A DNA stretch of 64,000 nucleotides from a virus. A program made the position numbers and the translations under genes. The notes under the pieces are model-generated. The model saw nothing but the letters and a program-made list of their open reading frames with translations, ran no database searches and was not told where the DNA came from. Positions 51,274 to 58,432 of the stretch are shown piece by piece (position 1 is the stretch's first letter; each line of letters opens with the position of its first letter). Location: the IMG/VR virus record IMGVR_UViG_3300049919_000418, positions 22,928 to 86,927 of that record. The stretch is one strand, 5' to 3'.

Positions 51274-51346
51274 CCACACTAAACTAATCTAGTGAAAGTG
51301 CGATTCTGAAAAAATCGAAAGGGAGGGGCGGAACCTCCAGTGTGGA
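51274..51346 (+). tRNA. tRNA-Phe(GAA), noncanonical T-loop GGCGGAA
   Basis: 73 nt cloverleaf: acceptor CCACACT/AGTGTGG with A73, D-arm ACT/AGT with an 11-nt loop lacking GG, anticodon stem CGATT/AATCG with loop CTGAAAA, T-stem GGAGG/CCTCC. The T-loop GGCGGAA has G54, G55 and G58 instead of T54, T55 and A58. All stems pair, so it is not random decay. Followed by C then TTTTT. Confidence 0.6.
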
Positions 51347-51362
51347 CTTTTTAAAAAAAGTC

Positions 51363-51391
51363 TTGACAAAGAACAAAAATAAGTGTAAACA
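51363..51391 (+). promoter_or_regulatory. Predicted promoter of the tRNA array
   Basis: TTGACA (51363-51368), 17 bases, TAAACA (51386-51391), in a TGTAAAC context shared with the RNR promoter. Confidence 0.6.
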
Positions 51392-51393
51392 GG

Positions 51394-51466
51394 TGTGGGG
51401 CAGGTGGTCTGGTTGACCATATTGGGTTCATATCCCGATGAGGCTTGTTCGATTCAGCGCCCCGAA
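51394..51466 (+). tRNA. Initiator-like tRNA-fMet(CAT)
   Basis: Anticodon stem TTGGG/CCCGA with loop TTCATAT: three G-C pairs next to the loop are the initiator hallmark. T-loop TTCGATT. Acceptor GGGG/CCCC pairs but its outer end is irregular, and the T-stem has mismatches, so ends are approximate. Confidence 0.55.
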
Positions 51467-51537
51467 CCTAAAACAATGAAATCCAACTGACTATTGGAGA
51501 TTAGATGTTAAGCCTATTGGCTAGTCACCGATAGGAA

Positions 51538-51606
51538 GGACTTTGGTGTAACAGCAACATGCCCGTCGCTTATGGCGGGAGACAAGGTGCAAATCCTTAA
51601 TGTCCA
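51538..51606 (+). tRNA. tRNA-like, anticodon loop expanded, TAT triplet
   Basis: Acceptor GGAC/GTCC plus two A-T pairs, D-arm TGT/ACA, T-arm AAGG-TGCAAAT-CCTT. The anticodon stem CCCG/CGGG leaves ten bases (TCGCTTATGG), or eight with a T-G pair. A TAT triplet after T could be the anticodon; decoding is uncertain. Confidence 0.5.
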
Positions 51607-51608
51607 AC

Positions 51609-51694
51609 GGAAAGTTAACCAGTCAGGGATTGGAGCTAATTGCTAATTAGCATGTGGCCTATAAAGCCATAGATTTCGAGTATCTATCTTTCCT
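51609..51694 (+). tRNA. tRNA-Ser(GCT)
   Basis: Acceptor GGAAAG/CTTTCC, anticodon stem GCTAA/TTAGC with loop TTGCTAA, long variable arm TGGC/GCCA, T-arm TAGAT-TTCGAGT-ATCTA. Type II structure as expected for serine. Confidence 0.82.
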
Positions 51695-51705
51695 CTTTTT
51701 ATAAA

Positions 51706-51792
51706 TCTCAGGTGGCGGAATTTGGCAGACGCACTCGACTGTTAATCGAGAAAGGGGAACCTTAACTACTGGATCGTGGCCAGTTCTGAGAG
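51706..51792 (+). tRNA. tRNA-Asn(GTT), type II, A54/T58 T-loop
   Basis: Acceptor TCTCAGG/TTCTGAGA fully paired, T1-A72 and G73 as in bacterial tRNA-Asn. Anticodon stem CTCGA/TCGAG, loop CTGTTAA. Has a Leu-like D-arm and a long variable arm AAGG-GGAA-CCTT, unusual for Asn. T-stem ACTGG/CCAGT with loop ATCGTGG: A54 and T58 are swapped. Confidence 0.68.
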
Positions 51793-51837
51793 CGAGTCTT
51801 GACTCCGAATTTTTTATACAGTAGGATCGAGCACAAC

Positions 51838-51909
51838 GCGGGTGTAGCTCAGAGGAAGAGCAAGATGCTTTTAACATCAAGGCCGGGATTTCGAAATTCT
51901 CCGCCCGCA
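51838..51909 (+). tRNA. tRNA-Lys(TTT)
   Basis: Acceptor GCGGGTG/CGCCCGC, D-arm GCTC/GAGC with GG, anticodon loop CTTTTAA, T-loop TTCGAAA with a T-T mismatch at 53-61. A73 then CA. CCA is not fully encoded. Confidence 0.8.
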
Positions 51910-51917
51910 CATATTTA

Positions 51918-51990
51918 GCTAGTGTAGCTCAGAGGCCAGAGCACGCGTCCGATAAATGCGGGGTCGGGATTTCGAAATTCCCCACTAGCA
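51918..51990 (+). tRNA. tRNA-Ile(GAT) with C33
   Basis: Acceptor GCTAGTG/CACTAGC, D-arm GCTC/GAGC, anticodon stem CGCGT/ATGCG with loop CCGATAA: position 33 is C, not U. T-arm as in the preceding Lys gene, also with T53-T61. Confidence 0.75.
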
Positions 51991-51991
51991 C

Positions 51992-52062
51992 GGGAGATTA
52001 ATTTAATAGTAAAATTACTCGTTTGCACCGAGAGTTCGAGGGAACGTAACCTTCATTTCCTA
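51992..52062 (+). tRNA. tRNA-Ala(TGC), T-loop AACGTAA
   Basis: Acceptor GGGAGAT/ATTTCCT with wobble, D-arm ATTT/AAAT, anticodon loop TTTGCAC identical to bacterial tRNA-Ala, T-stem GAGGG/CCTTC. T-loop AACGTAA has A54 and T58. Confidence 0.65.
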
Positions 52063-52067
52063 CATTT

Positions 52068-52156
52068 GGATCGTGCCGGGGTCGGCCCCCCAAATAGTCT
52101 TGAAAACTATGGTATGCGTAACCACTCGGATAACAGTTCGATGCTGTCACGGTCCT
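52068..52156 (+). tRNA. tRNA-Ser(TGA)
   Basis: Acceptor GGATCGT/ACGGTCC, anticodon stem ATAGT/ACTAT with loop CTTGAAA, long variable region, T-loop TTCGATG. D-stem GGGG/CCCC has a short loop. Confidence 0.72.
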
Positions 52157-52166
52157 CCTTTAAAAA

Positions 52167-52239
52167 AGCTCTAGGTCGGAATTGGTTTCCGAAATGATTT
52201 CATAAGTCGTTTAAGCCGGATCGTAACCGGATAGAGCTA
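52167..52239 (+). tRNA. tRNA(CAT), elongator Met or Ile2, T-loop ATCGTAA
   Basis: Acceptor AGCTCTA/TAGAGCT perfect, D-arm TCGG/CCGA with GG in loop, anticodon stem ATGAT/GTCGT with loop TTCATAA, T-stem CCGG/CCGG. T-loop ATCGTAA has A54-T58. Whether C34 becomes lysidine cannot be seen. Confidence 0.7.
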
Positions 52240-52240
52240 C

Positions 52241-52331
52241 GGAAAGTTAATCGTCAGGGTGACGGGTCTAATTGGAAATTAGAAGGTTCCAAAATAAAAT
52301 TTGGGATAGATTTCGAGTATCTAGCTTTCCG
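52241..52331 (+). tRNA. tRNA-Ser(GGA)
   Basis: Acceptor GGAAAGT/GCTTTCC, anticodon stem TCTAA/TTAGA with loop TTGGAAA, long variable arm, T-arm TAGAT-TTCGAGT-ATCTA identical to tRNA-Ser(GCT), discriminator G. Likely a duplicate of that gene with a new anticodon. Confidence 0.8.
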
Positions 52332-52332
52332 C

Positions 52333-52403
52333 GTCGAATAAATGTTACGGCAGCATGCCTCATTGCCTGTGAGGAAGAGAGGTTTCAATTACCTCATTCG
52401 ATA
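52333..52403 (+). tRNA. tRNA-Gly(GCC)
   Basis: Acceptor GTCGAAT/ATTCGAT, D-arm ATG/CAT with GG, anticodon stem CCTCA/TGAGG with loop TTGCCTG (T at 37 is unusual), T-stem GAGGT/ACCTC with canonical loop TTCAATT. Confidence 0.75.
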
Positions 52404-52427
52404 CATTTTTAATTTATTAAAAACAAT

Positions 52428-52501
52428 GACGTATTAGCCAAAAAGAAAGGCAAGGCGCTGCAACCGCCTGATTGAGATTGCAAAATTCTCATACGTCTCC
52501 A
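52428..52501 (+). tRNA. tRNA-Cys(GCA), CCA encoded
   Basis: Acceptor GACGTAT/ATACGTC, T73 as in bacterial tRNA-Cys then CCA. D-stem GCC/GGC with a loop lacking GG. Anticodon stem AGGCG/CGCCT, loop CTGCAAC. T-loop TGCAAAA with T53-T61. Confidence 0.78.
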
Positions 52502-52523
52502 AAAAAAAGATTAATAAAAGATC

Positions 52524-52551
52524 TTGACAAATTCAAAAAGTCCATTATAAT
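52524..52551 (+). promoter_or_regulatory. Consensus promoter inside the tRNA array
   Basis: TTGACA (52524-52529), 16 bases, TATAAT (52546-52551): both hexamers match the sigma70 consensus exactly. Drives the second half of the array. Confidence 0.8.
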
Positions 52552-52564
52552 GGCGGCACACAAA

Positions 52565-52633
52565 GCGCGGTTCGTCTAAGTTAGGACGCCTTCCCCTCCG
52601 GAAGGAAATGAAGTATCAAATCTTCGCCACTCA
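52565..52633 (+). tRNA. tRNA-Glu(CTC)-like, C33
   Basis: D-arm TTCGTCTA to GGAC matches tRNA-Glu. Anticodon stem CCTTC/GAAGG, loop CCCTCCG with C33. Acceptor has C-A and C-T mismatches. T-loop has one extra base. Confidence 0.5.
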
Positions 52634-52637
52634 CAAT

Positions 52638-52706
52638 ACCGGGATATTTTAATGGTAGAAAATCGCAATCAACGCGAAAACGAACGTTCGAATCGTTCTC
52701 CCGGCT
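52638..52706 (+). tRNA. tRNA-like, TCA in anticodon position, A33
   Basis: Acceptor CCGGGA/TCCCGG, D-arm TTTT/AAAA with GG, T-arm GAACG-TTCGAAT-CGTTC canonical. Anticodon stem TCGC/GCGA, loop AATCAAC: TCA with A33. Confidence 0.5.
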
Positions 52707-52709
52707 CAG

Positions 52710-52781
52710 TTTAGAGTAGTATAATGGATATTGCGCCCCGCAAGTAAGAGGGAAATTTTGGTTCGAACCCAAACTCTTAAC
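52710..52781 (+). tRNA. tRNA-like with collapsed anticodon arm
   Basis: T-arm TTTGG-TTCGAAC-CCAAA canonical; acceptor paired except one T-T. The anticodon region TTGCG-CCC-CGCAA folds as a five-pair stem with three loop bases; with a seven-base loop the triplet would be CCC with G33. Confidence 0.5.
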
Positions 52782-52786
52782 CTAAT

Positions 52787-52857
52787 GGGCCGGTGTTGTA
52801 ATGGTAGCATCGAAATTTGTGAAATTTCCGGACAGGGATCGTAACCCTGACGGCCCT
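52787..52857 (+). tRNA. tRNA-His(GTG), T-loop ATCGTAA
   Basis: Acceptor GGGCCG/CGGCCC, anticodon stem GAAAT/ATTTC with loop TTGTGAA, T-stem CAGGG/CCCTG with loop ATCGTAA (A54, T58). No extra 5' G paired to C73 is obvious. Confidence 0.7.
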
Positions 52858-52862
52858 CATAT

Positions 52863-52932
52863 CGGTTGGTAGCTTATAGAAAAGCGCTCGTGTTGTAATG
52901 AGTAGATGGAGGCTCAAACCCTTCCCTTCCGG
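52863..52932 (+). tRNA. tRNA-Thr(TGT)-like, 6/8-base anticodon loop
   Basis: D-arm GCTT/AAGC without GG, T-stem GGAGG/CCTTC with loop CTCAAAC (C54). Acceptor has two T-T mismatches. Anticodon loop is eight bases (TGTTGTAA), or six if T-A pairs. Confidence 0.48.
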
Positions 52933-52934
52933 CT

Positions 52935-53048
52935 TACAGTAGTAACAAATAGGAAAGCACTCGATAAGTTCATTGACTTTTTTCAAACAGTAAAAACGAC
53001 AAGTTAGGGTCGCAAGATGCATTGCGCGGATTGAGTTTTTACACTGTA
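52935..53048 (+). ncRNA. 114-nt structured RNA, possible degenerate tRNA
   Basis: Ends TACAGT/ACTGTA pair. Inside, GTAAAAAC (52990-52997) pairs perfectly with GTTTTTAC (53035-53042) and CGCAA/TTGCG forms a hairpin with six loop bases. No standard T-arm. May be one insertion-bearing tRNA or a different RNA. Confidence 0.35.
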
Positions 53049-53055
53049 TATTTTT

Positions 53056-53128
53056 GGGAGATTAGTTTAATTCTGAAAAACATCCGGCATTTGGCTGGAA
53101 GATGCTGGTTCGAACCCAGCAACTCTCA
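53056..53128 (+). tRNA. tRNA-like, TTT with A33
   Basis: Acceptor GGGAG/CTCTC, D-stem GTTT/AAAC without GG, anticodon stem TCCGG/CTGGA with loop CATTTGG (A33, G37), T-arm GCTGG-TTCGAAC-CCAGC canonical. Isotype uncertain. Confidence 0.52.
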
Positions 53129-53165
53129 CATTTGGCAAAATAAATAAATAAAAAAAATAGTATAT

Positions 53166-53243
53166 GGGGGATGGGACTGCTTAGGGTGGTCGTCGCACTT
53201 GCAATGCGAATACAGATCGGGGCAGAACCGATATTCTCCACCA
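53166..53243 (+). tRNA. tRNA-Ala(TGC), T-loop GGCAGAA, CCA encoded
   Basis: Acceptor GGGGGAT/ATTCTCC, anticodon stem TCGCA/TGCGA with loop CTTGCAA, T-stem ATCGG/CCGAT with loop GGCAGAA, A73 then CCA. Second Ala gene, with a different T-loop class from the one at 51992. Confidence 0.68.
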
Positions 53244-53273
53244 TAATTAATTGATTTTCAGTGAGTTATAAAT

Positions 53274-53348
53274 TATGGTTTAATTTAAATAGTAAAGTCC
53301 CGGAGATTTATACGGGATGATGAAGGATGCAAGGGCCTTCAACCATAG
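53274..53348 (+). tRNA. tRNA-like with 10-base anticodon loop
   Basis: Acceptor TATGGTT/AACCATA perfect, D-stem TTT/AAA, anticodon stem TCCCG/CGGGA enclosing GAGATTTATA, T-stem GAAGG/CCTTC with nine loop bases. Decoding not predictable. Confidence 0.45.
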
Positions 53349-53402
53349 CTTTGTTACGTGTAGGTAACAAACCCCTGTCCCAAAACTACAATTGTGGGAC
53401 GA
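53349..53402 (+). other. tRNA remnant-like hairpins
   Basis: TTTGTTAC/GTAACAAA forms a perfect eight-pair hairpin with GG in the loop edge, then TCCCA/TGGGA closes a 12-base loop. Looks like D and anticodon arms without a T-arm. Confidence 0.3.
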
Positions 53403-53475
53403 CATGAAAAAAGCATCTTGGAGATGCGCTTGCCGTGGAGGCTTGAGAGTTGAAGTTCGAATCTTCATTTTGTGC
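53403..53475 (+). tRNA. tRNA-Pro(TGG)-like, G33
   Basis: Acceptor CATGAAA/TTTTGTG with wobble, D-arm GCAT/ATGC with GG, anticodon region CTTGC-CGTGGAG-GCTTG (two T-T mismatches, G33), T-stem TGAAG/CTTCA with canonical TTCGAAT. Confidence 0.48.
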
Positions 53476-53476
53476 C

Positions 53477-53581
53477 TTCGGTTCGTGTATAAGTGATCTA
53501 TTTCCCAACTAGTTACAGGAAGTAGAAAAGGGGCAAGGTAGCCCATTATTACTACTTTGGGTTCGATTCCCAAAACCGGAG
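53477..53581 (+). tRNA. Long tRNA-like gene, type II
   Basis: 105 nt. Acceptor TTCGGTT/AACCGGA, T-arm TTGGG-TTCGATT-CCCAA canonical, variable arm GGGC/GCCC, G73. The anticodon region is CTATTTCC/GGAAGTAG enclosing 12 bases with CTAGTT. Leu(TAG) or Ser are possible; unclear. Confidence 0.42.
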
Positions 53582-53682
53582 CATACCTCGCGCCTCTTCG
53601 GCAAATTGCAGCGGTTTAATTTAGGAACAATTTTAAATCAAAGAAAAACAATTGCCGCCATGCGGAATTCGGGGTATTTTAT

Positions 53683-53755
53683 GCGTCGTTCGCCTAGTGG
53701 TATGGCATTTCGCTTCCAACGAAAAATAAGGAGAATTCGATTTTCTCACGGCGCA
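53683..53755 (+). tRNA. tRNA-Gly(TCC)
   Basis: Fully canonical: acceptor GCGTCGT/ACGGCGC, D-arm with GG, anticodon stem TTTCG/CGAAA with loop CTTCCAA, T-stem GAGAA/TTCTC with loop TTCGATT, A73. CCA not encoded. Confidence 0.88.
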
Positions 53756-53783
53756 CATACGAGAGCTAAAAAGCCTCACATTT

Positions 53784-53921
53784 ATGAAGTTTATTAAAAT
53801 GTTTTTTCACTCACTTTTACTGACTATTATTTTGCCCTGTTTGCTTTGGAGTGTATGCGTCGATTGTAGCGACATTGTTAACTGGTGGCTTGATAGGTTT
53901 TTTAAAATTAAAAATTCATAA
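53784..53921 (+). CDS. 45-residue membrane peptide
   Basis: Starts MKFIKMFFHSLLLTIILPC and continues LLWSVCVDCSDIVNWW, then a basic end (RFFKIKNS). One transmembrane helix with a basic C-terminus. Lies between a tRNA and the CCA-adding enzyme. No family recognised. Confidence 0.45.
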   Translation: MKFIKMFFHSLLLTIILPCLLWSVCVDCSDIVNWWLDRFFKIKNS

Positions 53922-53949
53922 AAAGAGCCTCGGCGGCGAAAATTAGTTG

Positions 53950-53977
53950 TTGACTTTTTGGTGTTTATTTGTAGAGT
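53950..53977 (+). promoter_or_regulatory. Predicted promoter for the CCA-adding enzyme
   Basis: TTGACT (53950-53955), 16 bases, TAGAGT (53972-53977), seven bases before the ATG at 53985. Confidence 0.45.
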
Positions 53978-53984
53978 AGCCGCA

Positions 53985-54665
53985 ATGAAACCGAAATACT
54001 ATATCGTGGGTGGATATGTTCGCGACCTTTTTTTAAATGTAAAAAGTAAGGATGTGGATTTTTGCTGTGAATGCGACTCATACGCTGAAATGAGGGCGGA
54101 CCTTATTTCCAAGGGCGTTGAAATATTTTTGGAGAATGAAAAATTCTTAACAATCAGAGCGCGGCACCCTAAATTTGGTGGAGTTGATTATGTTTGTTGT
54201 CGAGAAGAGGCAGGATACGCTGACGGAAGACGGCCAGACGAAGTAAGGATTGGAACATTGCTATCTGACTTAAGTAGGAGAGACGCGACTTGCAACGCCA
54301 TTGCAATGACCGAAGACGGAGAATTTATTGACCCATTCAATGGAATTGAAGATATTAAAAAGAATCTTTATCGTTGCGTGGGAGACACTTATGAGCGATT
54401 CGAAGAAGATTACCTCAGAATGATTAGGTCCGTGAGGTTTTCTATAACCAAGGGTTTCGCGCTTCACTATGATATTCAGGAAGCTTTTCTTGATAAAAAC
54501 TTGGTAATTAAATTAAAAAACATTAGCCGCGAACGAATTTATGAGGAGTTGAGAAAGTGTTTTGAATTTGATACTAAAAAAACTCTTGACTTCTTCCGCG
54601 AATTTAGCTACTTAGAGCAAGTGATTTTTGGCGAATGCGGAATTAAGCTGGAACCAAAAATTTGA
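53985..54665 (+). CDS. tRNA nucleotidyltransferase (CCA-adding enzyme)
   Basis: 226 residues from ATG 53985 (MKPKYYIVGGYVRD); an upstream start at 53958 lacks support. The head has GGYVRDLFLNVKSKDVDF with the two catalytic Asp residues, RIGTLLSDLSRRDATCNAIAM and DPFNGIEDIKKNLYRCVG, then FEEDYLRMIRSVRF, all class II CCA-adding motifs. At 226 residues it lacks much of the usual C-terminal body. Most tRNAs around it do not encode CCA, so it would finish them. Could also repair cut 3' ends. Confidence 0.87.
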   Translation: MKPKYYIVGGYVRDLFLNVKSKDVDFCCECDSYAEMRADLISKGVEIFLENEKFLTIRARHPKFGGVDYVCCREEAGYADGRRPDEVRIGTLLSDLSRRDATCNAIAMTEDGEFIDPFNGIEDIKKNLYRCVGDTYERFEEDYLRMIRSVRFSITKGFALHYDIQEAFLDKNLVIKLKNISRERIYEELRKCFEFDTKKTLDFFREFSYLEQVIFGECGIKLEPKI

Positions 54666-54672
54666 AAGTAAT

Positions 54673-54746
54673 CGGGGTGTAGCTGAGTGGTTATAGCACA
54701 GGTTTTATAAACCTGAGACGCGGGTTCAATTCTTCCGCCATCCCAA
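54673..54746 (+). tRNA. tRNA-Ile(TAT)
   Basis: Acceptor GGGGTG/CATCCC, D-arm GCT/AGC with GG, anticodon stem CAGGT/ACCTG with loop TTTATAA. T-loop begins TTCAATT but the stem GCGG/CCGC has extra bases, so that arm is irregular. Confidence 0.68.
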
Positions 54747-54754
54747 CTTTTAAG

Positions 54755-54861
54755 GCGCTTGTAGCTTAGGGGTGAAAGCTGCCGTCTCTTTAGCAGAATT
54801 ACATTAACTTGAAATTTTGCAAAATAAACGGTCGATAATGGTTCAACTCCATTCTGGCGCA
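54755..54861 (+). tRNA. tRNA-like, long insertion, 10-base anticodon loop
   Basis: 107 nt. Acceptor GCGC/GCGC extended, D-arm GCTT/AAGC, anticodon-like CTGC/GCAG enclosing CGTCTCTTTA, T-arm AATGG-TTCAACT-CCATT canonical. A long variable region contains ATTTTGCAAAAT. Isotype unknown. Confidence 0.48.
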
Positions 54862-54879
54862 CATAATAAAATTTAAATA

Positions 54880-55494
54880 ATGAGTAATACAGATAAATAC
54901 AAAGGTGAAAAAGTTTACGTGATTCCGCGTAGCTCGTTGTTGGGCATTGAAGGTGTTCAAGGTTTTCAGCTTTTGGGCGAAGACTTAATTCAGGAGGAAA
55001 TAATTGGACATCCCGATGGATTTTTAATGGATCGCGGGGCGGCGGAAATTGATCCGAATTATAAGCAAATTATTCCTTATTGTATTTTCTTTTGCGGCGA
55101 CAAGGTTTTAAACTATACTCGTGGTAAATCGGGTAACGAATCCCGCCTTCACTCTAAAATTTCTGTTGGAGTTGGTGGGCATATCAACGACGATGGGTTT
55201 GGGTTTTACGACGAAAGCGTTAATCGCGAACTTCAGGAGGAATTAGATTTGAATCAGGAGGATATTATCGGCCATCAAATGATTGGTATTTTAAACGACA
55301 ATACAGCTCTTGTTAGTCAAGTTCACCTTGGAGTCGTTCACCTTATTCAGTTGACAAGCGAAAACGTAACCGCAAAAGAGGATTGTTTGGCAAATCTTAC
55401 ATTTACGAATATTAAAGAATTAAATGGGCCGCTGTATGATCGCCTTGAAGGATGGTCACAATTTATCGTTAGGTATTTGGCGAGTGAAGAGTAA
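54880..55494 (+). CDS. Nudix-like hydrolase
   Basis: 204 residues. GVGGHINDDGFGFYDESVNRELQEELDL resembles a Nudix box with an extra few residues between Gly and Glu; RELQEEL supplies the metal-binding Glu residues. Before it, IPYCIFFCGDKVLNYTRGK fits the first strands. Lies among tRNAs. Substrate unknown. Confidence 0.7.
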   Translation: MSNTDKYKGEKVYVIPRSSLLGIEGVQGFQLLGEDLIQEEIIGHPDGFLMDRGAAEIDPNYKQIIPYCIFFCGDKVLNYTRGKSGNESRLHSKISVGVGGHINDDGFGFYDESVNRELQEELDLNQEDIIGHQMIGILNDNTALVSQVHLGVVHLIQLTSENVTAKEDCLANLTFTNIKELNGPLYDRLEGWSQFIVRYLASEE

Positions 55495-55501
55495 AAACAA
55501 G

Positions 55502-55575
55502 TGGTCCATAGCTCAGTCCGGTAGAGCTTTCGACCGATATTCGAAAAGTCAGTGGTTCGAATCCACTTGGGCCAA
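55502..55575 (+). tRNA. tRNA-Ile(GAT) with C33, second copy
   Basis: Acceptor TGGTCCA/TGGGCCA, D-arm GCTC/GAGC, anticodon stem TTCGA/TCGAA with loop CCGATAT, T-arm AGTGG-TTCGAAT-CCACT canonical. Shares C33 with the Ile gene at 51918. Confidence 0.72.
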
Positions 55576-55632
55576 CGTAAAAATACATTCGAAAGAGTGT
55601 TATTTTAACCTTTATAATAAAAATTAAAATAT

Positions 55633-55884
55633 ATGAGAGCAAAATTACAAGTCGTGTCGGTTGAAGATGCCAATCTTCCAGATGGTTCCAAACATGCGGA
55701 GCAAGTCAAATTTATGGCTGTTTGCGGCAATGATCCGTTCAAACCCGGTGGATATAGTGAGGATAATACCTTTGCAAAGTGGACGCCAACGGCGAATCTT
55801 GACATGCGAATCAACAACGAAGCATCTTGGGGAACATTGGTTCCGGGGCAGAAGTATTATGTTGATTTTACTTTAACTGAGTAA
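55633..55884 (+). CDS. Conserved small phage protein
   Basis: 83 residues, beta-rich: MRAKLQVVSVEDANLPDGS, QVKFMAVCGNDPFKPGGYSEDNTFAKWTP, then NLDMRINN and GQKYYVDFTLTE. The 'SEDNTFAxxTP' and 'GQxxYVDF' segments mark a small family common in large phages. Function unknown. It directly precedes the tmRNA. Confidence 0.6.
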   Translation: MRAKLQVVSVEDANLPDGSKHAEQVKFMAVCGNDPFKPGGYSEDNTFAKWTPTANLDMRINNEASWGTLVPGQKYYVDFTLTE

Positions 55885-55892
55885 GAATTTTA

Positions 55893-56224
55893 GGGGGTGA
55901 AATAGTTTCGACGTAACTTTGCACGTTTTCAATTGCAACAAAAGATCCGCTGGATTTAAACAGCAAAAATAATTGGCGAAAATCAATTAGCACTCGCAGC
56001 GTAATGCGAGAACGGCTAGCTTCTCTGTGAAAGCTTGATCCGTTAATTAGCAGATATTTGATGTTTAAGAATTAAACGTATAGGTAGCATCAAGCCGAAA
56101 AATGAAGCGTGGTATATACGATAGAAGCCTAGGGTGTAAGTTCCCAAGTCCAAACTTAAAATTGTTGTAGATGGTTGATTATAAAGAAGTTACGGACGGC
56201 GGGGGCAGTTCCCGCCCATCTCCA
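55893..56224 (+). ncRNA. ssrA: tmRNA (transfer-messenger RNA)
   Basis: 332 nt. Acceptor GGGGGTG (55893-55899) pairs with CATCTCC (56217-56223) before A73. The internal frame at 55963-56004 codes AKIIGENQLALAA and stops at TAA; ending in LAA is what cellular proteases recognise. 5' GGGGGTGAAATAGTTTCGACG resembles bacterial tmRNA 5' ends. The T-stem GGCGGG/CCCGCC has loop GGCAGTT, with G54-G55 instead of T54-T55. It would rescue stalled ribosomes and tag proteins. Bacteriophage tmRNAs are rare. Confidence 0.85.
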
Positions 56225-56225
56225 T

Positions 56226-56750
56226 ATGGTAAATAAAAACGCATCAGAGGGGGCTAGGGCTCTTTTAGTCGCCTTTGGCAAAGGATATAAAGTAACAAAA
56301 TCGGGCGAGGTGATTTCCCCAAATGACATAAACCTGTCTTTATTTAATGATTCACGGGGTTATTTAAATTTCAAAATCTGCATGAATTGCGGGAAGAAGA
56401 AAAACGTTCCCGTCCATCGTTTCCAAGCCTACATGAAATTCGGCTCAAGCATTTTTGATGCTGAAGTTGTAAGGCACTTGGACGGAAATTGCAAAAATAA
56501 TAGTTGGGACAATCTTGAGCTGGGAACCCACAAAGAAAACTCTGCGGATCGCTGTCCTAAAGAGGTTAAGGGGTTTTCAATTGCCGCGTCCAATAAAATT
56601 AGAAGATTTTCCGATTCGGAAATGTCCAATATCAAAGAGTTTTACAAAACAAATAAATCTTATAAAAAAACAATGGAGAAATTCGGAATCTCCACGAAGT
56701 CAACGATGCATCGAATTTTAAATGTTGACTATGTAACGAAAAAAGATTAA
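56226..56750 (+). CDS. HNH homing endonuclease abutting tmRNA
   Basis: 174 residues from ATG 56226, one base after the tmRNA discriminator. HNH core: KKNVPVHRFQAYMKFG and VVRHLDGNCKNNSWDNLELGTH with the typical H-N-N; two Cys in ICMNCGK. The C-terminal half (RRFSDSEMSNIKEFYK, TMEKFGISTKSTMHRIL) is a helix-turn-helix that would read its DNA target. Free-standing, so probably a homing gene inserted at the tmRNA 3' end. Confidence 0.8.
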   Translation: MVNKNASEGARALLVAFGKGYKVTKSGEVISPNDINLSLFNDSRGYLNFKICMNCGKKKNVPVHRFQAYMKFGSSIFDAEVVRHLDGNCKNNSWDNLELGTHKENSADRCPKEVKGFSIAASNKIRRFSDSEMSNIKEFYKTNKSYKKTMEKFGISTKSTMHRILNVDYVTKKD

Positions 56751-56755
56751 TTAAT

Positions 56756-56839
56756 GCCGTCCTGCCTGAGAAGTCGAAAGGGCTCGTTTTGTAAGCGAGA
56801 AGGGAAACTACGTCACTGGTGCAAATCCAGTGGGCGGCT
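56756..56839 (+). tRNA. tRNA-Thr(TGT), long variable arm
   Basis: Acceptor GCCGTCC/GGGCGGC, anticodon stem CTCGT/GCGAG with loop TTTGTAA, variable region of 14 bases, T-arm CACTGG-TGCAAAT-CCAGTG, which is seen in other phage tRNAs. T73. Confidence 0.65.
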
Positions 56840-56847
56840 CACAAAAA

Positions 56848-57168
56848 ATGAATAATTTCCAAAAAGATGTAAAAAATCTATGGACAACGGATGACCGAAG
56901 CAATCGGTTCTTTTCCGATGATTTAATTAGCAAGTTAGAAACTGCGTCGCGCAATGACCTTGCGGAGAGAATTGAACTTTTAAATAAATTATACAAAGAA
57001 GTTAATCGCCGCGAAAAAATTTATTTGCTTGCGCACGAAGCTTTGCTTGACAACCGTGCATTAGCTGATAAAACAATTGCGAACGAATACCCAGCCGGGT
57101 ATTGCCCGCCAGAAAAGCGGCGCAAATTAATTGATGCATTTGAACAAATTTTAGAACTAGTTAAATGA
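56848..57168 (+). CDS. Hypothetical protein
   Basis: 106 residues from ATG 56848 (MNNFQKDVKNLW); a six-residue longer start overlaps the tRNA. Helical and charged (FFSDDLISKLETASRNDLAERIELLNKLYKEVNRREKIYLL). Ends four bases into the next gene. No domain recognised. Confidence 0.5.
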   Translation: MNNFQKDVKNLWTTDDRSNRFFSDDLISKLETASRNDLAERIELLNKLYKEVNRREKIYLLAHEALLDNRALADKTIANEYPAGYCPPEKRRKLIDAFEQILELVK

Positions 57169-57551
57169 TTTACGAATCTGGAAAAATTGCTCCTTCGCCA
57201 AAAGAGAGAAAAGAAAATAAACTGAAAGGGGACGAGTCTTTTAGTCGCCTTTGTTCTGAGACTTTTGGCAAAAATCTCCCAAATTTCGAAAAACGAGAAT
57301 TGGATTTCAATTCGATGATTTTATTGGCGTGTAAAAACGTAGAGCCTCATCGTGACCCGTTAGTTGTTGATAAAATAACAGGGCTCAGGAGAGCGGCACT
57401 TTTTTGGTTGACAGAAGGAAGGGTGCATCTACAATGCGGAGACGACTTTATAAGAATGAGTTCCGGGGATTATGTAATTTTTGATGATTCAATTGCTCAT
57501 TGCGTAGTGGCCGATAGAAAATGGCGGGGTGCCGCCGCACAATTTATTTAA
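57165..57551 (+). CDS. Cupin / double-stranded beta-helix protein
   Basis: 128 residues. NVEPHRDPLVVDK (HxD), RRAALFWLTEGRVHLQCGDDF, MSSGDYVIFDDSIAHCVVADRKWRGAA: a jelly-roll with His-x-Asp and a later His, the two-metal-ligand pattern seen in 2-oxoglutarate oxygenases, though the overall small size is cupin-like. It may hydroxylate something or bind a ligand. Overlaps the previous gene by ATGA. Confidence 0.5.
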   Translation: MIYESGKIAPSPKERKENKLKGDESFSRLCSETFGKNLPNFEKRELDFNSMILLACKNVEPHRDPLVVDKITGLRRAALFWLTEGRVHLQCGDDFIRMSSGDYVIFDDSIAHCVVADRKWRGAAAQFI

Positions 57552-57557
57552 AACAAC

Positions 57558-57935
57558 ATGAGATTATTTAATTTTGCAATGTATAATATTTCCCCAATTC
57601 AAGCGGGAATCCAGTGCATTCATAGCTGCGTAGAGTATTCATTGAAATATCCGTTCGACGCCAATTTCAAAGAGTGGGCAAATGAACATAAAACCGTTAT
57701 TATTCTTAGTGGCGGCGGATCGAATGATATGGTAGAGCGTGAAAAAGAGCTTGAATCTTTTAATATTCAGTTCGCTTCGTTTCAAGAGCCGGATTTAAAT
57801 AATTCAATTAGCGCAATCTCATTTTTAGTCGGAGAAAAGATTTACGCTTACGATCCTGAAAAACACGGAATGCGCTCGTCGCGGGAAGTGGAATTTGAAA
57901 CGTATTTGAAATCATTTAAATTGGCCGCGAATTAA
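57558..57935 (+). CDS. Peptidyl-tRNA hydrolase 2-like protein
   Basis: 125 residues. NISPIQAGIQCIHSCVEYSLKYP, then EWANEHKTVIILSGGGSNDM, EREKELESFNIQFASFQEPDLNNSISAISFLV, the strand-helix order of Pth2/PTRHD1 proteins ('K-x-s-x-G-i-Q-x-aH' helix start, 'D-x-x-x-T' late). Pth2 frees tRNA from stalled peptidyl-tRNA. Position in a tRNA/tmRNA region supports this. Catalytic residues not certain. Confidence 0.6.
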   Translation: MRLFNFAMYNISPIQAGIQCIHSCVEYSLKYPFDANFKEWANEHKTVIILSGGGSNDMVEREKELESFNIQFASFQEPDLNNSISAISFLVGEKIYAYDPEKHGMRSSREVEFETYLKSFKLAAN

Positions 57936-57936
57936 C

Positions 57937-58065
57937 ATGCTATCCCTTATAGTTAATATTCCTGATTGGATTTTTAACGGGCCATTTTGGCTTGGTTTCG
58001 TAGCGGGCGCGGTTGCGACAATTGGAATTATTTTGTTTTCAATTAGAAACTGGAATCCATTTTAA
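57937..58065 (+). CDS. 42-residue membrane peptide
   Basis: MLSLIVNIPDWIFNGPF then a transmembrane segment WLGFVAGAVATIGIILFSI and a short end (RNWNPF). Starts one base after the previous stop; the next gene follows immediately. Could be a holin-like or membrane-anchored small protein. Confidence 0.45.
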   Translation: MLSLIVNIPDWIFNGPFWLGFVAGAVATIGIILFSIRNWNPF

Positions 58066-58066
58066 T

Positions 58067-58285
58067 ATGAAATACTATGAAATAATTTTAAACGATTTTG
58101 TTATTACAGTATGCGCTGAAGATCATTGTGAGCATGCATTTAGGGGAAATTCAAAATACGCTTTTGGAAGGATAACAAAGCAAAAGTTCCAAAGTTACGG
58201 AGATAAGCCTTGGGAAATTCCATTTTCAATGGTTAGATATAGCCCAAGATATATTTTTACAATGGGCTTGTCTCATTGCGAATAA
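58067..58285 (+). CDS. Small hypothetical protein
   Basis: 72 residues from ATG 58067 (MKYYEIILNDFVITVC). A beta-start, then KYAFGRITKQKFQSYGDKPWEIPFSMVRY. Ends next to a tRNA. No family recognised. Confidence 0.48.
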   Translation: MKYYEIILNDFVITVCAEDHCEHAFRGNSKYAFGRITKQKFQSYGDKPWEIPFSMVRYSPRYIFTMGLSHCE

Positions 58286-58287
58286 AC

Positions 58288-58360
58288 GCCTCGTTAGTGT
58301 TAAAGGCCAACACGCCGCTGTGGTATTGCGGAGGAAAGGGTTCGATTCCCTTACGAGGCT
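58288..58360 (+). tRNA. tRNA-Thr(GGT)
   Basis: Acceptor GCCTCGT/ACGAGGC, D-arm GTGT/ACAC with GG, anticodon stem CCGC/GCGG plus T-T with loop GTGGTAT, T-arm AAGGG-TTCGATT-CCCTT. T73. Confidence 0.78.
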
Positions 58361-58361
58361 C

Positions 58362-58432
58362 GCCGCGATAGTTCATTGGTAGAACGCTATTTTCGTATAT
58401 TAGAGAGGCGGGTTCGATTCCTGTTCGTGGCT
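58362..58432 (+). tRNA. tRNA-Thr(CGT)
   Basis: Acceptor GCCGCGA/TCGTGGC, D-arm GTTC/GAAC with GG, anticodon stem CTATT/ATTAG (one T-T) with loop TTCGTAT, T-stem GCGGG/CCTGT, loop TTCGATT. Ends one base before the next gene's ATG. Confidence 0.75.

What the first reader, a model, noticed from the sequence alone, without database searches (positions are those of the whole stretch)
51706..52857. Four tRNAs with swapped A54/T58 in the T-loop
tRNA-Asn (51706), Ala (51992), CAT (52167) and His (52787) have loops ATCGTGG, AACGTAA, ATCGTAA and ATCGTAA, with T-stems perfectly paired or with one outer mismatch. The nearly universal reverse-Hoogsteen pair T54-A58 is replaced by A54-T58, a covarying change in four unlike tRNAs. 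Random damage would not change both positions together. The change might hide the tRNAs from host modification enzymes or nucleases.
Basis: partly seen in the sequence, partly recalled or inferred. Interest (0 to 1): 0.87.

Follow-up and report, generated by a model that had tools for sequence, protein, structure and literature searches.

The report
Phage tRNAs with a swapped elbow pair
Four tRNA genes of this phage really do have a nearly universal base pair in the T-loop turned round (A54/T58 instead of T54/A58), and the same swap turns up as a compensated, phage-enriched change in about one in twenty phage tRNA genes sampled, including phages of ordinary laboratory E. coli, which makes it testable.

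Summary
All four tRNAs fold best with A54...T58 loops (ATCGTGG, AACGTAA, ATCGTAA, ATCGTAA); no better register exists and shuffled DNA gives no comparable cloverleaf. It is also larger than reported. About ten of 26 tRNAs in this 166-kb phage have non-standard elbows: A54/T58, G54/G58, or A18/G55. In 555 distinct tRNAs from viral contigs sampled without regard to the T-loop, 27 are A54/T58 (4.9%) against 4 A54/A58 and 1 T54/T58. Pooled phage tRNAs (2,079) hold 180 A54/T58 where independence predicts 19. A second pair covaries almost perfectly (G18-U55 to A18-G55, 58 of 58), and 8-14 swaps too. A small bacterial control was 74/74 standard. Cultured E. coli K-12 phages provide a natural pair: tRNA-Phe identical over 48 nt, but T54/A58 in BF23 and Bas32 and A54/T58 in Bas28. 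The best reading is functional tRNAs with a compensated alternative elbow that predictably lacks T54 and probably psi55. 'Hiding from modification enzymes' follows from enzyme specificity but is untested; 'hiding from nucleases' has no support. The closest known case is A54-A58 in eukaryotic initiator and Ala tRNAs. I found no description of A54/U58 in the searchable open-access literature.

The parts
51706..51792 (+). class II-like tRNA, anticodon GTT, T-loop ATCGTGG (A54/T58), G18/T55
51992..52062 (+). tRNA-Ala(TGC), T-loop AACGTAA (A54/T58) with A18/A55
52167..52239 (+). tRNA with CAT anticodon, T-loop ATCGTAA (A54/T58), G18/T55, A48
52787..52857 (+). tRNA-His(GTG), T-loop ATCGTAA (A54/T58), G18/T55, A48; the same T-arm occurs in 7 other viral contigs
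51274..51346 (+). tRNA-Phe(GAA), T-loop GGCGGAA (G54/G58) with A18/G55; missed by ARAGORN and Rfam
53166..53240 (+). tRNA-Ala(TGC), T-loop GGCAGAA (G54/G58, G55), encodes ACCA
52428..52498 (+). tRNA-Cys(GCA), T-loop TGCAAAA (T54/A58) with A18/G55; an alternative register with a 9-nt loop also pairs
56756..56840 (+). class II-like tRNA, anticodon TGT, T-loop TGCAAAT (T54/A58) with A18/G55
53958..54665 (+). CCA-adding enzyme / poly(A) polymerase head-domain protein inside the tRNA cluster; nearly all the tRNA genes lack CCA
   Evidence: PF01743, E=2e-21; tails
51274..58432 (+). tRNA cluster of the phage (19 cloverleafs in the window; 7 more in L001 just beyond it)

Best explanation
These are real, functional phage tRNAs whose elbow uses an alternative, compensated set of tertiary contacts. 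The U54-A58 pair that closes the T-loop is replaced by A54-U58, usually with a purine at 60, a strong G-C pair at 52-62 and often a purine at 48. C56 stays and its partner G19 stays, so the G19-C56 stacking platform of the elbow is kept. In other tRNAs of the same cluster the neighbouring contact is replaced too (G18-U55 by A18-G55), or 54/58 becomes G/G. The T-loop therefore still folds and docks on the D-loop and the tRNA works in translation, but the loop no longer fits the recognition rules of the host's T54 methylase and psi55 synthase. The likely evolutionary path is TTCGATT to TTCGATA (A60) to ATCGATA (A54/A58) to ATCGTTA (A54/U58). Shown: the sequences, the covariation, intact stems, enrichment in phages over the bacteria sampled, near-identical natural pairs. 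Inferred: the tRNAs are made, charged and used; the pair forms; T54/psi55 are absent; the elbow is less dependent on modification.
For: 54/58 covariation: 180 A/T against 19 expected and only 2 T/T; at the level of 80%-identity clusters 109 against 12.5. Unbiased viral sample 27 A/T of 555, over 15 anticodons. 18/55: 58 of 58 G55-C56-G19 tRNAs have A18, against 5 of 1,955 others. 8/14 swap A8/T14 49 against 5.8 expected, linked to A54/T58 (odds ratio 9.8). Linked changes: R60 154/176 against 52/1501, 52-62 G-C 170/176 against 993/1501, R48 98/176 against 225/1501. Stems as intact as in normal tRNAs, 93% encode CCA, T33 99%. Natural pairs: E. coli phage tRNA-Phe identical over nt 1-48 with TTCGATT, TTCAATT or TTCGATA in Tequintavirus and ATCGTTA or ATCATTA in Epseptimavirus; tRNA-Glu pair ATCGAAA/ATCGTAA, 98% identical over the 5' part. 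Bacterial control 74/74 T54-A58; scan of 257 Gb of bacterial and archaeal genomes gave 77 pattern hits, of which only about a dozen loci are cloverleafs. The phage keeps a CCA-adding enzyme gene inside the cluster.
Against: No RNA, charging or modification data. The four window tRNAs lie in a cluster that also holds doubtful tRNA-like sequences (52710, 53056), so individual genes could be decaying. Many sampled tRNAs are related, so counts are not independent events; clustering reduces but does not remove this. The A54-U58 geometry was not modelled. The bacterial control is small. If modification-free folding were strongly favoured, more than about 5% of phage tRNAs should show it.
Confidence: 0.62

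Rival explanations
1. Neutral compensation: phage tRNAs are used briefly and modified incompletely, so constraint on 54/58 (maintained in cells partly by TrmA and TruB) is relaxed; the loop drifts through the tolerated A54-A58 pair to A54-U58 with no gain.
For: Mosaic presence, one to three per locus in most loci; both versions in phages of one host; A54/A58 intermediates exist (33) and T/T almost never (2); tRNA-Glu pair ATCGAAA/ATCGTAA.
Against: A54/T58 is five times commoner than the supposed intermediate A54/A58 and comes with several linked changes (R60, G52-C62, R48), which looks like a preferred state; it is uneven across isoacceptors (Ile-GAT 45 of 88, Glu-TTC 3 of 79).
Confidence: 0.3
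2. Evasion: the swap hides phage tRNAs from a host defence nuclease or other factor that reads the T-loop, while the phage uses them in translation.
For: Strong enrichment in viruses over the bacteria sampled; the changed bases are those that the TruB consensus reads (PMC7912444).
Against: Only a minority of tRNAs per phage are swapped; phages of the same host carry both forms of tRNA-Phe; I found no T-loop-specific tRNA nuclease defence in the papers searched.
Confidence: 0.1
3. Damaged or pseudo-tRNA genes, or sequencing errors.
For: Some other genes in the window cluster are weak cloverleafs (52710, 53056).
Against: Same loops in cultured, independently sequenced phages; stems intact, CCA present, covariation far beyond chance.
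Confidence: 0.03

Closest known systems
A54-A58 T-loops of eukaryotic initiator tRNA-Met and of AGC-tRNA-Ala (Westhof et al. 2020, PMC7566577; PMC9023262)
   Same: A54 instead of T54; purine at 60; in tRNA-Ala linked to a purine at 48. Phage A54/A58 loops (ATCGAAA, ATCGATA) show the same set: R48 in 23 of 33.
   Different: Residue 58 is A there and T here; those authors state that these pairs are not seen in bacterial or archaeal tRNAs; here they are phage genes in many isoacceptors, and 18/55 and 8/14 also vary.
Canonical bacterial tRNA elbow (Rfam RF00005; U54-A58, G18-psi55, G19-C56)
   Same: Cloverleaf, G53-C61, G19-C56, T33 and anticodon arm.
   Different: The 54/58 pair is reversed; some tRNAs also have A18-G55, G54/G58 or A8/U14.
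C54-A58 in human/primate tRNA-Ile-GAU (PMC9023262)
   Same: A natural exception at the same pair. C54/A58 occurs 15 times among the phage tRNAs.
   Different: A one-sided change; not a swap.
Combinatorial suppressor-tRNA libraries that probed 54-58 and the D/T-loop contact (Zagryadskaya, Doyon, Kotlova, Steinberg; known to me only from memory and reference lists)
   Same: Selected functional tRNAs with altered 54/58 or 18/55.
   Different: Made in the laboratory; the papers could not be read here, so whether A54-U58 or A18-G55 was among their clones is unknown.

Membership tests
Canonical tRNA (RF00005) | Four-stem cloverleaf with 7-nt T-loop and G53-C61 | tested here: met
Canonical tRNA (RF00005) | T54-A58 | tested here: not met
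   A54/T58 in all four
Canonical tRNA (RF00005) | G18-U55 and G19-C56 | tested here: met
   Both met in 51706, 52167, 52787; 51992 has A18/A55 but keeps G19-C56
Canonical tRNA (RF00005) | Rfam gathering score (29 bits) | tested here: inconclusive
   51992 38.2 and 51706 37.8 bits pass; 52167 and 52787 are not reported
Eukaryotic A54-A58 class (initiator/Ala-AGC) | A54 with A58 | tested here: not met
   T58 in all four
Eukaryotic A54-A58 class (initiator/Ala-AGC) | purine at 60 | tested here: met
   G, A, A, A in the four; 154 of 176 class I A54/T58 phage tRNAs
Eukaryotic A54-A58 class (initiator/Ala-AGC) | purine at 48 | tested here: inconclusive
   2 of 4 in the window; 98 of 176 class I A54/T58 phage tRNAs
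TruB/TrmA substrate | 53-GUUYRANYC-61 T-loop | tested here: not met
Functional tRNA | transcribed, CCA-tailed, aminoacylated | not testable with these tools
   needs tRNA sequencing; the CCA-adding enzyme gene nearby is indirect support

The most novel reading that the evidence does not exclude
Phages have evolved a modification-independent tRNA elbow: the two U-A trans Watson-Crick/Hoogsteen pairs (8-14, 54-58) can be turned round and 18-55 rewired to A-G as interchangeable modules, so that phage tRNAs fold and work without the host's T54, psi55 or Gm18 machinery and are invisible to factors that read those bases.
Probability: 0.3. Interest if true: 0.88.

Novelty: new variant of a known kind. 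Interest (0 to 1): 0.74.

Why it matters
T54-A58, G18-psi55 and U8-A14 are textbook invariants, and several of these bases are those modified by TrmA, TruB and TrmH. Phages supply natural, compensated exceptions to all of them, in near-identical pairs infecting laboratory E. coli. That makes a long-standing question testable: are these bases conserved for folding, for modification, or for recognition by processing enzymes and the ribosome? It also shows an annotation gap: ARAGORN finds 99% of standard phage tRNAs but 26% of those with A54/T58 plus G55 and 52% of G54/G58 ones, so phage tRNA sets are under-counted.

Tried and rejected
Better cloverleafs in other registers: none for the four. Pseudogenes/sequencing errors: rejected by covariation and by cultured isolates. 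Origin from host tRNAs: rejected as a general cause; 74/74 sampled bacterial tRNAs are standard, and many of the few genomic A54/T58 hits lie in arrays of 9-28 tRNAs that look like mobile elements. A general shield against nucleases: weak, because only a minority of tRNAs per phage are swapped. Relatives of the window phage itself: none usable (no nucleotide match, none, only a remote helicase match); its proteins gave only general hits, so host and taxonomy stay unknown. Literature searches for A54-U58 and 18-55 variants gave nothing; most subscription papers are not held.

Full report
What is in the window. The window is part of a 166,137-bp virus record with a tRNA cluster at 51.27-58.43 kb that continues in L001 (positions 86,928 on of the record). 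Because standard tools score the T-loop, I wrote a cloverleaf finder that uses stems, T33 and weak D-loop features but ignores the T-loop sequence. It gives 26 cloverleafs in the two stretches. The four tRNAs of the finding are confirmed with the loops stated. No alternative T-arm register is better, and shuffles of the region give nothing of score 44 or more in 1.2 Mb. ARAGORN misses two of the four, and Rfam's tRNA model misses two.

More than four. L001:6291 (AGCATTA) is a fifth A54/T58 tRNA. 51274 (GGCGGAA), 53166 (GGCAGAA) and L001:6445 (GTCGGAA) have G54/G58. Where position 55 is G the D-loop usually has A18-G19 instead of G18-G19 (51274, 52428, 56756, L001:6291; 53166 was scored as G18 but its D-loop also offers A-G); where 55 is A (51992), position 18 is A. 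C56 is kept throughout. So two tertiary contacts of the elbow change in a paired way within one genome.

Other phages. A scan of viral contigs with the His T-arm (18 nt) returned seven contigs full of clean tRNAs that encode CCA, several with A54/T58. I then drew a sample that does not depend on the T-loop, using an 18-nt canonical D-arm. It gave 555 distinct tRNAs: T54/A58 510, A54/T58 27, A54/A58 4, C54/G58 4, C54/A58 3, G54/G58 3, G54/A58 2, T54/T58 1, C54/T58 1. The loci are contigs with at least one tRNA, not all phages. Pooled, 2,079 distinct tRNAs hold 180 A54/T58 against 19 expected under independence; clustered at 80% identity, 109 against 12.5. G55-C56 tRNAs with G19 have A18 in 58 of 58 cases; other tRNAs have A18 in 5 of 1,955. 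Position 18 was assigned with a preference for GG, which works against this result. 19/56 also shows paired exceptions (A/T 21, T/A 8), alongside 29 unpaired G/T. [quoted passage not shown] PMC7912444 for 54-58), is swapped to A8/T14 49 times against 5.8 expected and is linked to A54/T58.

Linked features. A54/T58 comes with a purine at 60 (154/176 against 52/1501), G52-C62 (170/176 against 993/1501) and a purine at 48 (98/176 against 225/1501). A54/A58 phage loops have a purine at 60 in all cases listed and R48 in 23/33. This is the set described for eukaryotic tRNA-Ala, where A54-A58, a purine at 48 and a purine at 60 occur together (PMC7566577). A54/T58 can therefore be read as one step beyond a known alternative. 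G34 anticodons are over-represented (133/180 against 437/1501), unexplained.

Not damage. Stems are as intact as in normal tRNAs, 93% encode CCA and 99% have T33. Cultured phages carry the swap: Vibrio pv27, Aeromonas 4_4572, Proteus Stubb, Serratia CHI14, Acinetobacter Mithridates, Pseudomonas Ab02, Streptomyces Zeigle, Arthrobacter Racecar. The clearest case is tRNA-Phe of T5-like phages. The first 48 nt are identical in BF23, slur09, IrisVonRoten, IrmaTschudi, mar003J3, SH9 and Tennessee. The loop is TTCAATT, TTCGATT and TTCGATA in the first three (Tequintavirus), ATCGTTA in IrmaTschudi, mar003J3 (Epseptimavirus) and Tennessee, and ATCATTA in SH9. The T-stem changes with it (GTTCG to GTTGG). 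BF23, IrisVonRoten and IrmaTschudi are all recorded on E. coli K-12. Other sister pairs at 80% identity or more over the 5' part occur in 15 anticodons (48 tRNAs), one of them A54/A58 against A54/T58 in tRNA-Glu. Some of the GTTGG...ATCGTTA tRNAs of unrelated phages also share a D-arm, so part of the spread is probably by exchange of tRNA genes, not repeated origin.

Bacteria. Tertiary pairs were standard in 74 of 74 distinct tRNAs from four bacterial genomes, a small control. A scan of 257 Gb of genomes with GGGATCGTWACCC..ACCA gave 77 hits, of which only about a dozen loci are cloverleafs. Several of those lie in arrays of 9-28 tRNAs. Possible chromosomal exceptions are tRNA-Ala(GGC) in two Patescibacteria (L162, L221) and single tRNAs in L160 and L212.

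Mechanism. In the standard elbow U54-A58 stacks on G53-C61 and flips out 59 and 60, letting U55 and C56 meet G18 and G19 (PMC7912444). Retention of G53-C61, C56 and G19, with compensated change elsewhere, indicates that the elbow still forms. TruB accepts 53-GUUYRANYC-61 and the T54 methylases act on U54 only (PMC7912444), so A54/U58 tRNAs should lack T54 and probably psi55. The rest is inference: such tRNAs are charged and used, and gain independence from elbow modification. The CCA-adding enzyme gene in the window cluster fits active maturation of tRNAs whose genes mostly lack CCA. A review reports that phage tRNAs of a vibriophage are made, modified and sustain translation (PMC13191261), which supports function of phage tRNAs in general but not of these.

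Limits. No RNA data, no three-dimensional model, a small bacterial control, related sequences in the counts, and a literature search limited to open-access papers. The host of the window phage is unknown.

Noticed in passing
window 51706-51792; also IrmaTschudi L348:3897-3982, L018, L012, L310, L287: tRNAs with Asn anticodon GTT but a long (12-20 nt) variable arm, and Leu- or Ser-like D-arms in some, recur in phages (9 of 103 GTT tRNAs in the sample, plus the window and Bas28). If charged by LeuRS or SerRS they would misread Asn codons.
   Followed up: partly
window 55893-56227: A tmRNA gene (Rfam RF00023, 54.9 bits) inside the phage tRNA cluster.
   Followed up: no
window 54755-54861: A tRNA with a 39-nt insertion in the anticodon loop (Rfam hit 46.6 bits).
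   Followed up: no
window 52638, 52710, 53056: tRNA-like genes with A instead of T at position 33, two of them with weak stems or odd anticodon loops; may be decaying genes or misread registers.
   Followed up: no
L001:8640-8890: Overlapping tRNA pieces; one tRNA-like unit (GGTAAG...CTTACC) seems to contain a second T-arm (GGGTTCGATTCCC) inside it.
   Followed up: no
phage tRNA sample, 49 tRNAs: Swap of the 8-14 pair (A8/T14), linked to A54/T58.
   Followed up: partly
phage tRNA sample: A54/T58 is concentrated in G34 anticodons (133/180 against 437/1501), above all Ile-GAT, Phe-GAA, Thr-GGT and Asp-GTC.
   Followed up: partly
L151, L163, L219: Acidobacterial (Bryobacterales/Solibacter) assemblies with arrays of 15-28 tRNAs in a similar anticodon order, each with one A54/T58 tRNA-Glu.
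   Followed up: no
L162:333-405, L221:3406-3478: tRNA-Ala(GGC) with A54/T58 in two Patescibacteria genomes with few neighbouring tRNAs: possible chromosomal cases.
   Followed up: no
cultured phage records (e.g. SH9, Tennessee, Stubb, DU_PP_V): A54/T58 tRNA-Phe genes left unannotated, or overlain by or overlapping hypothetical-protein calls (e.g. Serratia Slocum).
   Followed up: partly
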